Shown here in pieces: positions 26,217 to 29,358 of a stretch of 35,047 nucleotides of DNA. The notes below the pieces were generated by a model that was given only the letters and a program-made list of their open reading frames with translations, had not been told where the DNA came from and made no database searches. Position 1 is the stretch's first letter. Each line of letters begins with the position of its first letter. This DNA comes from Acidimicrobiaceae bacterium. Its GTDB lineage: Bacteria; Actinomycetota; Acidimicrobiia; Acidimicrobiales; RAAP-2. Both the position numbers and the translations under genes were made by a program. The DNA lies in assembly GCA_003142095.1 (NCBI GenBank), contig PLON01000022.1, forward strand, positions 1-35,047, given 5' to 3'.

Positions 26217-26247
26217 TGGCGAGAACAACGCCGCCGCTGGGCGGCTA

Positions 26248-26408
26248 GGAGTCTGTTGAATAATCCAGACCGAGATTTGCACTCGCGATTTTTGTTGGAC
26301 TGATTTGACTTGGACGACGATTTGAAGCCGTCTGAGAGTTCTACAGCGTGTTGGTCTTCGTTGCCGTTCCGGACGAGTCTCTCAAAAGCGACTAATTCAA
26401 CAGTCTCC
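26248..26408. mobile_element. MITE-like element with 17-bp-scale terminal inverted repeats
   Basis: The ends, with the flanking CTAG, read CTAGGAGTCTGTTGAATAA (26245-26263) and, on the other strand, CTAGGAGACTGTTGAATTA (26411-26393), 17 of 19 identical. The element is 161 bp if a TA is duplicated at the target (26246-26247 and 26409-26410). It encodes nothing. The size, termini and CTAG/TA target suggest a miniature non-autonomous relative of an insertion sequence of the IS5 or IS1182 kind; the parent is not in this window. It separates pgmB from the operon that follows. Confidence 0.8.
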
Positions 26409-26445
26409 TAGAAGGATGACGACTGCTCCCAGTAAGGTGACAACG

Positions 26446-26847
26446 ATGACCTTTGCGGACGATTCGGATGACCTTCGCATGGCCGCGGCGTCGCTGCGTT
26501 CAAATAGTTCCGACGTCCATATCTTGTTAAAGGCGCTCTGCGACGAACTTTCTGACACCCTCGGCGAACGACTTCACATTGAACGCGCCGGTGGCCGGTT
26601 TCATAAATCCGACGCCATCTCATCAGTGACCATCTCGATAGCGGGTAGTCAGTTCGAAGCGGTAGTGGACGGCGCGGCACTGCAGTGCCACGTGGGGCAC
26701 GTCTCGGGCGGCATTCGCATTCGAAGCGAGACAGTCGACATCGATCAGTGGATCCTTCGCTTACTCGAGGCGCTGAAGGATGAGGCCGCCCATAGTGATT
26801 CCGCGCGGCAGGCTCTTGAAAATATTGTTATTGGAGGAAATCAGTGA
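26446..26847 (+). CDS. Hypothetical protein, first gene of the YbjQ-like operon
   Basis: The 133-residue product is soluble and mixed alpha/beta: a helical N-terminal half (DDLRMAAASLRSNSSDVHIL, ALCDELSDTLGE), then beta-type segments (SVTISIAGSQFEAVVDG, QCHVGHVSGGIRIRSETV) and a final helix DQWILRLLEALKDEA. I recognise no family by name. ATG 26446 has AAGGTG upstream. ATG 26416 would add ten residues but starts only a few bases after the mobile element, with no room for a ribosome site. The four-base overlap with the next gene indicates translational coupling and a shared role. Confidence 0.7.
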   Translation: MTFADDSDDLRMAAASLRSNSSDVHILLKALCDELSDTLGERLHIERAGGRFHKSDAISSVTISIAGSQFEAVVDGAALQCHVGHVSGGIRIRSETVDIDQWILRLLEALKDEAAHSDSARQALENIVIGGNQ

Positions 26848-27641
26848 GCGATGTAACTAACGATCTGCCCCAGGCCACGGAACATCGGCTCGAAGAGCTC
26901 GAAAAGGGGCTCTTCACTTCGGACCTTTCGGTAAATGAGTTCCTGCTCGTGAAAGAGGCCGGGTTTCATCCCGTGGGCTTCGTCATGGGTTCCTCGATCT
27001 ATCACACCGGAATTCAGACGCGAAAGTGGAACCAGAGCCAAGAGTTGACGAAGTTGACTGAGGCGATGTACAACGCGCGCGAGTTGGCGATGACGCGAAT
27101 GGAAGAAGAGGCCGCCGAACTCGGCGCCGACGGTGTCGTGGGCGTGCGACTTGACGTCAACTACTACGAATGGGGAAAGGACGCGGCGGAGTTCATCGCG
27201 GTCGGTACCGCCGTCAAGGCGGAAGACGGCGTCTCGCGACGCAACGCCAAAGGTAAGCCGTTTACGTCGGACCTCTCGGGACAGGACTTTTGGACGTTGG
27301 CTCAAACGGGATACCAACCCCAGGGCCTCGTGATGGGCACCTGCGTGTACCACATCGCCCACCGCGGCCTCGGCCAAACGCTCGGTACGACGGGTCAGAA
27401 CGTTGAACTGCCGAACTTCACTCAGGCACTCTACGAAGCGCGCGAGTTGGCCATGACGAGAATGCAAGACGAAGCCAACGAACTCGGAGCCTCAGGCATC
27501 GTCGGGGTTCGCCTCGAAGAGAAGTCGCACCAGTGGGGCTCGCACACGATCGAGTTCCTGGCGCTCGGAACGGCGGTCACCAAGACGTCCGACGAAGTCA
27601 CGCTGACCAAGCCCGTCACCATCATTTCGCTCGACAACTGA
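26844..27641 (+). CDS. Tandem YbjQ-like (heavy-metal-binding/UPF0145-type) protein 1
   Basis: The 265-residue product has two copies of one domain (about 24-124 and 140-245). Each begins FTSDLS...F, then AG/TG(F/Y)xPxG(L/F)VMG, the strongly repeated ARELAMTRM..EA.ELGA.G(V/I)VGVRL, and ends F(I/L)A(V/L)GTAV. The last part is the YbjQ signature: a helix, GAxxVVGVR and a GTAV strand. YbjQ proteins form rings of five; the name heavy-metal-binding is historical and no function is proven. The second copy has C167, H170 and H173 close together (CVYHIAH). GTG 26844 has GGAGG upstream. It overlaps the next gene by one base. Confidence 0.82.
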   Translation: MSDVTNDLPQATEHRLEELEKGLFTSDLSVNEFLLVKEAGFHPVGFVMGSSIYHTGIQTRKWNQSQELTKLTEAMYNARELAMTRMEEEAAELGADGVVGVRLDVNYYEWGKDAAEFIAVGTAVKAEDGVSRRNAKGKPFTSDLSGQDFWTLAQTGYQPQGLVMGTCVYHIAHRGLGQTLGTTGQNVELPNFTQALYEARELAMTRMQDEANELGASGIVGVRLEEKSHQWGSHTIEFLALGTAVTKTSDEVTLTKPVTIISLDN

Positions 27642-28528
27642 TGTCCCCGAGTGATTTGCCCGAAGCGGCGGAACGACGCCTCGGCCACGGCGCGTTCTCG
27701 TCGGGACTGAGTGTCGCCGACTTCGCCGCGTGTTTGGAGATGGACCTCGAGCCCGTCGGACTCGTCCAAGGATTTTGCGCGATGCAGTGGAGCAGTTACG
27801 CGGGCGGACTGCGGCGCGGAATGACTCCTTACGGGGGAGGCCAGGGCGGCTACGTCGAGAACTATCAGTGTCCTCACGGGATGATCAGCGGCGAGCATCG
27901 GATGTGGGGACAGAACTATCAACAGACCTGGATCGAAGCGGCGTGGACCGAAGGATTCTCCTCGGCGTATTCGCGCATGCTCGAAGAGGCGACGGCTCTC
28001 GGCGCCGACGGCATCGTAGGAGTTGTCGATACCCAGAGTTCACTGAGTGATGCGGGGATTATTGAGTTCCACCTCCTGGGGACCGCCGTGAAACTCAAGG
28101 GCGCGCCAGTGGCAACGGGCACTCCCTGGACGACGTACTTGGCCGGGCAGCGTTTGGCGAAACTGTTCGAGGCCGGTTACGCGCCGGTCTCGGTGGTCGC
28201 GGTCGTCTCGTCCGTTCGGGTCTGGGCGTACTGCATGACCGAATACCTGATGGGTAGCGGTGGCGCGTCAATGTGGGCGCAAAACACGACGCCCATGGAG
28301 ATCGAGCAGGTCGTGCGAGCCCAGAGCGCCGCGAGAGCCATCGCGAGGAAAAGCGCGCGCGACCAGTTACACGGAGACTCGCTGCACGGTGCCGACCTCC
28401 AGGTGCTGGAGCGAGAGTTCGAACAGGGTGATGTCGAGATCCAGACTCTGCTTCGAGGAAACAGGGTCCGCCGGTTCAAAGAGTTCGAGGCCCTGCCCGT
28501 GCCGCAACCGACGGTGCGTCTGTCGTGA
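27641..28528 (+). CDS. Tandem YbjQ-like protein 2, with insertion and a degenerate second domain
   Basis: The 295-residue product (ATG 27641 in TGATG) is a paralogue of its neighbours. The first domain (about 17-151) keeps FSSGLSVADF, LEPVGLVQG, EEATALGADGIVGVV and HLLGTAV. It has an insertion of about 35 residues (52-100) rich in Gly/Tyr/Trp that carries C77, H79 and H86, possible metal ligands. The second domain (about 162-285) keeps only TYLAGQRLAKLFEAGYAPV and a helix; the GAxGVVGV and GTAV motifs are gone, so it may be a structural or partner-binding remnant. It overlaps the next gene by four bases. Confidence 0.75.
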   Translation: MSPSDLPEAAERRLGHGAFSSGLSVADFAACLEMDLEPVGLVQGFCAMQWSSYAGGLRRGMTPYGGGQGGYVENYQCPHGMISGEHRMWGQNYQQTWIEAAWTEGFSSAYSRMLEEATALGADGIVGVVDTQSSLSDAGIIEFHLLGTAVKLKGAPVATGTPWTTYLAGQRLAKLFEAGYAPVSVVAVVSSVRVWAYCMTEYLMGSGGASMWAQNTTPMEIEQVVRAQSAARAIARKSARDQLHGDSLHGADLQVLEREFEQGDVEIQTLLRGNRVRRFKEFEALPVPQPTVRLS

Positions 28529-29358
28529 GTTTGCGTCCGGAAACCCCTATCGACATTGCGGCCGACGTGCGCCGTGCCGCCACTGGTCAATCCATGACCA
28601 CGTCGGGCACGTCGATGATGTCTGATTTGTCGATTGACGAAGAACTGAATCTGCACGCCATTGGCTGGGAACCAGTCGAACTCGTGAGCGGACTCTCGGT
28701 GTTCTCGACGCCCGCGGGGATGTGGAACTGGGGCCAGGGCGAGATCACAGGAGCGACGGAGGCTCACGGATTGGCCTTTAAGAATGCGCTGGCGCGAATT
28801 CACCAAGAGGCGGCGAACGCCGGCGGTCACGGGGTCGTGGGCGTGCACATCGAGCGGACGGTCCACTCGTCACATATCGAGGTCTCACTGCTGGGTACGG
28901 CGGTTCGCCCGGTCGGTTCAGCTCGCATCGATATGAACCACGTCTTTGTCTCGGATCTCTCGGCCCGCGATTTCGCGCTCCTTATGGTCGCCGGGTGGGA
29001 GCCTCTGGGTCTCGCGAACGGCGCGAGTTTCGTCTACGCCCCTCGTCGCAGCGTCGGCGCGGTCTTCCAGCAGCAGACCCAAAACGTCGAACTGACGAAC
29101 TTTACGGCCGCGATGTACTCGGCGCGCGAGTCCGCGATGCAACGAATGCAAGAGTCCGCACTCGCCCTCGGTGGTACGGGCGTCGTTGAAGTCAAGGTCG
29201 TTGAAGGTCCCATGAGGTTTGCGGCCCACGCGATCGGCTTCGCTTCGTGGGGGACAGTCGTACGACTCTCGGCTTCGTCGCACCAGTTGGTGAGGCCCAC
29301 CGCCGTGGTGTCGCTCAACGACGCGACGGTGACCTTTGAAGCGGCCACCCTCGCGTAG
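28525..29358 (+). CDS. Tandem YbjQ-like protein 3
   Basis: The 277-residue product has two domains (about 33-128 and 140-247). The first keeps SDLSIDEELNLHAIGWEPVELV, NALARIHQEAANAGGHGVVGVHI and SLLGTAV. The second keeps FVSDLSARDF, VAGWEPLGLANG, QNVELTNFTAAMYSAREAM-like and QESALALGGTGVVEVKV. The second copy shares QNVEL.NFT with the second copy of protein 1 and is clearly its closest relative, so whole two-domain genes were duplicated. About 30 residues of linker precede domain one. GTG 28525 overlaps the upstream stop. A 65-base gap with a possible promoter follows. Confidence 0.8.
   Translation: MSLRPETPIDIAADVRRAATGQSMTTSGTSMMSDLSIDEELNLHAIGWEPVELVSGLSVFSTPAGMWNWGQGEITGATEAHGLAFKNALARIHQEAANAGGHGVVGVHIERTVHSSHIEVSLLGTAVRPVGSARIDMNHVFVSDLSARDFALLMVAGWEPLGLANGASFVYAPRRSVGAVFQQQTQNVELTNFTAAMYSARESAMQRMQESALALGGTGVVEVKVVEGPMRFAAHAIGFASWGTVVRLSASSHQLVRPTAVVSLNDATVTFEAATLA

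What the first reader, a model, noticed from the sequence alone, without database searches (positions are those of the whole stretch)
26245..26411. 161-bp MITE-like element placed at the head of the YbjQ-like operon
Terminal inverted repeats of 17/19 identity flanked by CTAG with no coding capacity point to a non-autonomous mobile element. Removing it would leave only 66 bases between pgmB and the first operon gene, so the element may have separated a formerly continuous transcription unit. In RNA its ends could pair into a hairpin that affects read-through.
Basis: partly seen in the sequence, partly recalled or inferred. Interest (0 to 1): 0.6.

Follow-up and report, generated by a model that had tools for sequence, protein, structure and literature searches.

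The report
IS1182-type mini-transposon inserted at CTAG
A 167-base piece of mobile DNA without genes has recently copied itself to at least five places in this uncultured actinobacterium, almost certainly moved by an enzyme of the IS1182 transposon family; look-alikes of nearly the same length but mostly unrelated inner sequence occur in several bacterial phyla.

Summary
Five identical 167-bp copies lie in the genome; congeners hold homologues up to 80% identical to it. Its ends match complete 1735-1765-bp IS1182-family elements in nine congeners. At a sister copy's site all nine orthologous loci examined have one CTAG at the point, so CTAG is a pre-existing target that is duplicated: an IS1182-associated MITE. 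CTAG is rare and often an amber stop, so many copies sit on stop codons without harming the genes. The downstream operon has a conserved promoter-like motif behind the element and none of 18 relatives examined has pgmB beside it, so a split transcription unit is not supported. Beyond the finding: elements with such ends occur in four phyla with up to 20 interior clusters but a narrow length (157-174 bp where 152-177 was allowed; 26 of 33 pairs at 157-172 in a length-blind scan of 13 carriers). Printed IS1182 MITEs of Paracoccus (159-bp body, 4-bp repeats, as here) and Methanosarcina (160, 169 bp) fit. A length rule for IS1182 MITEs is the most interesting open reading.

The parts
26245..26411 (.). 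MITE with both CTAG copies (167 bp)
   Evidence: five identical genomic copies; homologues in congeners
26245..26248 (.). left copy of the CTAG target duplication
   Evidence: sequence; empty sites of a sister copy have one CTAG; inferred for this copy
26249..26261 (+). left terminal inverted repeat GAGTCTGTTGAAT
   Evidence: near-identical terminus in IS1182-family elements
26262..26394 (.). interior without own gene, conserved in congeners, no match to the interiors of nine IS1182 copies
   Evidence: no Rfam match
26395..26407 (-). right terminal inverted repeat
26408..26411 (.). right copy of the CTAG target duplication
   Evidence: inferred as above
26230..26245 (.). G+C-rich stem-loop directly left of the insertion, behind pgmB
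   Evidence: terminator-like on the - strand only
   Evidence: PF00702
26433..26438 (+). TAAGGT, putative -10 box of a leaderless promoter of the operon
   Evidence: TAAGGT before the inferred start codon in 17 of 18 relatives examined
26446..26847 (+). first operon gene, likely start at 26446 (open frame from 26416); no Pfam match

Best explanation
The stretch is a miniature inverted-repeat transposable element (MITE) mobilised in trans by an IS1182-family DDE transposase. The transposase is inferred to bind the GAGNCTGTTGAAT termini and join the 159-bp body to a CTAG, which is duplicated (shown at orthologous empty sites of a sister copy, inferred for this one). The five identical copies of this genome (shown) point to a recent burst. 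Because CTAG is rare inside genes and is often an amber stop, many surviving insertions lie at gene ends and rebuild the stop codon. In this window the insertion is intergenic, upstream of the operon's own putative promoter, and most likely has little effect on the operon.
For: Five 100% identical copies. 28 matches, partial ones included, to the family model in 11 of 99 genomes of the genus, own included; the ten model sequences match by construction. Same termini on complete 1735-1765-bp elements in nine congeners; the transposase of one scores 324.5 bits against the 270-bit cut-off of NF033551 IS1182, and its relatives bring in the other eight. One CTAG at the orthologous point in 9 of 9 loci examined for the MITE at G032:C5, and in 1 of 4 for the IS at G029:C47. 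Host-matched termini in another phylum: Myxococcales fen_1144 has CTAGGAGCGTGTTGCGGATAG on its IS and CTAGGAGCCTGTTGCGGATAG on its short element. 24 of 65 flank sides are stops of ORFs of 100 aa or more, against 39 of 532 sides of background CTAGs (P 8e-10) and 39 of 212 sides of non-genic CTAGs (P 0.004). A printed precedent, MITEPye1, has the same body length, 4-bp repeats and IS1182-like termini (PMC11578231).
Against: No IS1182 transposase was found in the own genome. Of the 11 genomes with the MITE only G003, G031 and G116 hold a near full-length one; G032 has an N-terminal piece running into a contig end, G009 decayed pieces. Draft assemblies often lose multicopy elements, but that is an argument, not a demonstration. 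The window's own insertion has no orthologous empty site among the relatives examined, because the upstream neighbour is not conserved. Two of the four sites queried gave no contiguous empty site; three of four relatives at the G029 site lack CTAG and a fifth was inconclusive. By two-flanked element the stop-codon excess over non-genic CTAGs is not significant (9 of 22 against 35 of 106, P 0.47). Movement was not observed.
Confidence: 0.93

Rival explanations
1. The element moves by the inverted-repeat-replacing route reported for IS1272 (IS1182 family): CTAG would be part of the element, and a genomic stem-loop would be replaced without target duplication.
For: IS1272 belongs to the IS1182 family, and three new insertions replaced stem-loops (PMC5678879; abstract and two results sections read). 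The window copy lies beside a G+C-rich stem-loop.
Against: Empty sites carry one CTAG in otherwise collinear sequence; nothing is replaced. Once composition is corrected, target flanks are no more structured than other CTAGs (83 targets against 88 non-genic sites, P 0.16 to 0.41; against 222 genic sites P 0.06 to 0.73). The uncorrected difference was strong (P 1e-7) and goes with a higher G+C content of the targets.
Confidence: 0.04
2. The element now regulates the YbjQ-like operon as terminator, insulator or RNA hairpin between pgmB and the operon.
For: It stands between the genes and its ends pair in RNA. Elements of the wider set are rarely between divergent genes (2 of 43 against 16 of 83 background sites, P 0.03), as terminator-like elements would be. 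A large survey reports IS1182 over-represented between convergent genes (PMC9208149, passages read), and MITEPye1 is said to be able to alter co-transcribed mRNA (PMC11578231, passages; a proposal there).
Against: No intrinsic terminator inside; the operon has its own conserved promoter-like motif downstream; pgmB is not a conserved neighbour in the 18 relatives examined; the identical copies elsewhere speak for a recent insertion. Depletion between divergent genes is also what selection against promoter damage would give.
Confidence: 0.12
3. It is a conserved structured RNA or chromosomal site, not a mobile element.
For: Interior conserved among congeners (mean column identity 76% over 10 sequences); 5 of 25 predicted pairs include a change on both sides.
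Against: Identical paralogues in one genome, empty sites of a sister copy, transposon termini, no Rfam match; outside the ends the predicted helices are short and the covariation term is +0.34, i.e. no net support.
Confidence: 0.02
4. It is a simple internal-deletion derivative of an IS1182 copy.
For: Shared termini.
Against: The interiors of ten MITE copies (24 bases trimmed at each end) have no blastn match at E 0.1 to the nine complete IS copies. The parent IS copy need not be among the nine.
Confidence: 0.15

Closest known systems
MITEPye1 of Paracoccus yeei (PMC11578231; results section on transposable elements read in full, discussion in passages)
   Same: 159-bp body, 4-bp direct repeats, no gene, intergenic, termini similar to IS1182-family elements, predicted to be mobilised by them
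   Different: Alphaproteobacterial host, 18-bp repeats, folds into a long stem-loop at the RNA level, 1-3 copies per chromosome; its letters and its repeat sequence were not compared here
MITEs paired with ISMac2 (IS1182 family) in Methanosarcina acetivorans, Table 4 of PMC3852290 (section read)
   Same: IS1182 partner, 160 and 169 bp, 14 and 7 copies; the paper says that of its MITEs generally only the borders resemble the partner; 4-bp repeat for the 160-bp one
   Different: Archaeal host; inverted repeats given as 26 and 25 bp; the 169-bp one is listed with direct repeat 0; letters not compared here
IS1182-family insertion sequences, e.g. ISPse1 (PMC3281130, passages read)
   Same: family of the presumed transposase; ISPse1 is listed with 16/16 and 4 in the repeat columns
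   Different: autonomous, 1653 bp; its target is not given in the passages read
IS1272 of Staphylococcus (PMC5678879)
   Same: IS1182 family
   Different: reported to replace stem-loops without target duplication; here CTAG is duplicated and no stem-loop preference is found

Membership tests
MITE | short, no coding capacity | tested here: met
   167 bp; no ORF of 80 aa or more lies within it
MITE | terminal inverted repeats | tested here: met
   16/17
MITE | several dispersed copies in the genome | tested here: met
   five identical copies on five contigs
MITE | target site duplication | tested here: met
   one CTAG in 9 of 9 examined empty loci of a sister copy; inferred for the window copy
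IS1182-associated element | termini shared with an IS1182-family IS | tested here: met
   nine complete IS copies in congeners
IS1182-associated element | partner transposase in the same genome | tested here: inconclusive
   none found in the own assembly; near full-length in 3 of 11 MITE-bearing genomes
IS1182-associated element | mobilised by the transposase | not testable with these tools
   needs a transposition assay
IS1272-type inverted-repeat-replacing element | target stem-loop replaced, no duplication | tested here: not met

The most novel reading that the evidence does not exclude
IS1182-family transposases impose a length on their passengers. Miniature elements with CTAGGAG-type ends are about 167 bp long (about 159 without the CTAGs) in four bacterial phyla and, from print, in a fifth (Paracoccus, 159 bp) and in an archaeon (160 and 169 bp), although their interiors fall into up to 20 sequence clusters and 16 of 30 folded are full-length hairpins. 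The length would reflect the geometry of the synaptic complex (or a hairpin intermediate), and unrelated empty cassettes would have arisen repeatedly.
Probability: 0.45. Interest if true: 0.6.

Novelty: new member of a known kind. Interest (0 to 1): 0.42.

Why it matters
It names the probable mover and the target of a repeat without genes, and shows by empty sites that the target is CTAG, so insertions can land on stop codons and rebuild them. The near-constant length over unrelated interiors suggests a testable physical rule for a little-studied transposase family.

Tried and rejected
Split transcription unit: rejected on promoter and synteny grounds. Hairpin target preference: seen without composition control, gone with it. 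Conserved RNA structure inside the element: not supported. Plasmid reservoir: no match among 72,556 plasmid records at E 1e-5. Viral reservoir: four patterns together covering total lengths 59-299 gave 0 contigs. Exact 23-mer of the left end in genome contigs: 0 (records of the own genome may be left out there). Stop-codon preference beyond what CTAG rarity and selection give: weak. By flank side P 0.004 against non-genic CTAGs, by two-flanked element P 0.47, and 21 of 43 against 25 of 83, P 0.05, in the wider set. The gene calls are a crude longest-ORF method of my own. G000:C18 (identical to G005:C16, counted once), G050:C43 and G005:C47 were left out of the count; L157, L190 and L198 out as duplicates. 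In one search, 15 of 83 sites were too near a locus end to score, and 23 of the 68 scored fall inside a called ORF, which may be gene-caller error or true gene insertion; not resolved.

Three further empty loci were examined. PMC11578231, until then only in listings, was opened and proved the closest precedent; because its MITE has the same body length I raised the odds of the length reading from 0.35 to 0.45. '20 unrelated interiors' became 'up to 20 clusters', because one cluster (L198) is a relative of the window's own family by the comparison.

Full report
Observation. The stretch 26245-26411 has inverted ends (16 of 17) that did not arise in shuffles (0 of 40), CTAG at both ends and no gene of its own. 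In the own assembly (2.64 Mb, 77 contigs) five copies are identical over all 167 bases: C76 (the window), C60, C40, C28 and C21. Three end exactly at a contig end, as expected where an assembler stops at a repeat. At C45:18434-18479 two 22-bp termini face each other across 'NN'. That is either an assembly gap that could hide an insertion sequence or a real palindrome of about 46 bp; facing termini 50 and 57 bp apart exist in other genomes, and I cannot decide.

Relatives. Searching 100 genomes, own included, with the 167 bases gave matches in 5: the own genome, G004 and G032 with full-length matches (77-80% identity to the window copy), G050 and G052 with terminal matches only. A sequence-only model from ten copies found 28 places in 11 of 99 genomes of the genus, own included (the ten match by construction, and several of the rest are partial). 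Copies that match nearly end to end are 161-169 bp long. Copies within one genome are 94-100% alike, those of different species 68-87% where they align over most of their length. The G000 copy at C18:148858 lies in a stretch identical to another species (see the noticed items) and is not among the five.

Partner. A termini-only search of 99 genomes of the genus, own included (up to 3 mismatches), gave hits in 18. At G052:C69 the terminus borders an open frame of 505 aa that is IS1182-family (NF033551, 324.5 bits against a cut-off of 270; Pfam DUF772 and DDE domains). Complete elements of 1735-1765 bp with CTAG and the same kind of repeat at both ends were measured in nine genomes: G052, G026, G116, G120, G045, G029, G003, G031 and G001. 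The MITE interior is not a piece of them: ten interiors against the nine elements gave no match at E 0.1. The own genome shows no transposase. Of the 11 MITE-bearing genomes G003, G031 and G116 have a near full-length transposase, G032 an N-terminal piece that runs into a contig end, G009 decayed pieces.

Target. I joined the flanks at four insertion sites and searched 99 genomes. For the MITE at G032:C5, where open frames of 301 and 163 codons from either side end in the CTAG, nine loci that run through the point were examined, six at 88-93% and three at 73-83% identity; all nine have one CTAG there. Further, more distant matches across the point in the list were not examined. For the IS at G029:C47 the closest relative (G021, 92%) has one CTAG, three more distant ones lack it, and a fifth alignment ended at the point. 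The other two sites gave no contiguous match in the part of the list shown. So CTAG is a target that is duplicated. CTAG occurs 266 times in 400 kb of genus DNA against 1319 expected from base composition; 35 of the 266 are stops of called ORFs. Of 65 flank sides of 43 elements and element ends (MITE, IS and partial copies, the C45 pair included; three copies left out as told below) 24 are such stops, against 39 of 532 background sides and 39 of 212 non-genic sides (P 0.004). Counted by two-flanked element the excess over non-genic CTAGs vanishes (9 of 22 against 35 of 106, P 0.47), so most of the effect is CTAG rarity plus selection. Stem-loop targeting, as reported for IS1272 (PMC5678879), is not seen once composition is controlled.

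Effect on the neighbours. The first operon gene has matches in 41 of 99 genomes, own included. Of the 20 loci fetched, one is the own and one lacks upstream sequence. Of the other 18, 17 show TAAGGT just before the inferred start codon and one (L106) TAGAGT, and none has pgmB or the GH65 gene in the upstream sequence held, 0.5 to 1.5 kb; the remaining 22 relatives were not examined. In the window TAAGGT is at 26433-26438, seven bases before ATG 26446, downstream of the element. The spacing fits a leaderless -10 promoter (inference from spacing; general knowledge of Actinomycetota promoters, recalled). Insertion at a CTAG that was already there leaves the last 34 bases before the start codon unchanged. 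Thus a split transcription unit is not supported, and an effect on read-through is open but has no positive evidence.

Wider family. A pattern with the two ends and 152-177 bp total length hit 96 stretches in the genome collection; 80 loci were listed and hold 83 elements, a few of them from the window's own genus. By record titles they belong to Actinomycetota (Acidimicrobiia, Nocardioides, Pimelobacter, Mobilicoccus, Solirubrobacter and others), Myxococcota, Bacteroidota and Gemmatimonadota. By my own estimate for uniform base composition under one chance hit is expected. Lengths run from 157 to 174, and 67 of 83 are 166-171. A wider pattern (119-179) in 396 Actinomycetota genomes gave ten elements in two genomes, the own and one other, all 167-171 bp. 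A scan with one terminus only, blind to length, in 13 genomes chosen because they carry such elements (listing cut off) gave 33 facing pairs within 3 kb: 26 of 157-172 bp and seven of 46 (the C45 pair), 50, 57, 78, 101, 110 and 202 bp (counted by hand). One 246-bp pair was seen in the 80 loci. Interiors of the 83 and the own fall into 20 clusters at blastn E 1e-4 over 40 bases or more; this is an upper bound, since L198 stands alone there but is related to the window's family. In 16 of 30 representatives, own included, every predicted pair is symmetric about the centre, i.e. the whole element is one hairpin; the window's element is not. Of 23 genomes searched for IS1182, own included (a 24th was not held), 15 have matches and 3 exceed the cut-off. 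Of 14 of those loci examined, four (L277, L279, L282, L287) show termini within two mismatches of CTAGGAGNCTGNTG on both sides of the transposase. In print, MITEPye1 of Paracoccus yeei is 159 bp between 4-bp repeats (PMC11578231), exactly the body length here, and two archaeal IS1182 MITEs are 160 and 169 bp (PMC3852290).

Comparison and novelty. The element meets the tested features of a MITE and of an IS1182-associated element; a partner in the same assembly and an observed transposition are missing. IS1182 MITEs are in print (PMC3852290, PMC11578231), so it is a new member of a known kind. What I did not find stated is the CTAG target shown by empty sites, the coincidence with stop codons, or a common length across phyla. 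That rests on nine searches of the paper library, some of whose lists were shown only in part (20 of 147, 15 of 44, 12 of 44), and on six papers opened: two sections and the abstract of PMC5678879, one section and passages of PMC3852290, one section and passages of PMC11578231, and passages of PMC3281130, PMC10969869 (no IS1182 or CTAG in it) and PMC9208149. Most subscription journals are not held.

Noticed in passing
G000:C18 from about 146965 to its end at 149680 (L312, L022), against G005:C16 (L123, L313): Two congener genomes are collinear at about 68-82% identity per 500 bases and then abruptly 100% identical for the last 2.7 kb or so of the contig, an old MITE copy included: recent transfer or, more likely, a chimeric or contaminating contig end.
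   Followed up: partly
G000:C45:18434-18479: Two 22-bp IS1182-type termini face each other with NN between them: a scaffold gap that could hide the autonomous element, or a minimal palindrome like the 50- and 57-bp pairs in other genomes.
   Followed up: partly
L158, L165, L182, L160, L180 and others: 16 of 30 folded representatives of the cross-phylum set are full-length symmetric hairpins of 163-172 nt with 57-70 pairs.
   Followed up: partly
window 26844-29358: Three consecutive genes with YbjQ_1 domains, followed by an AIM24 gene. The gene before them, without a Pfam match, has relatives in 41 of 99 genomes of the genus, own included.
   Followed up: no
G124:C23:45514 and G003:C15:12421: A MITE and an IS1182 copy each sit at a CTAG that ends a called ORF on both sides, i.e. 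between convergent genes that would share the stop codon without the insert.
   Followed up: partly
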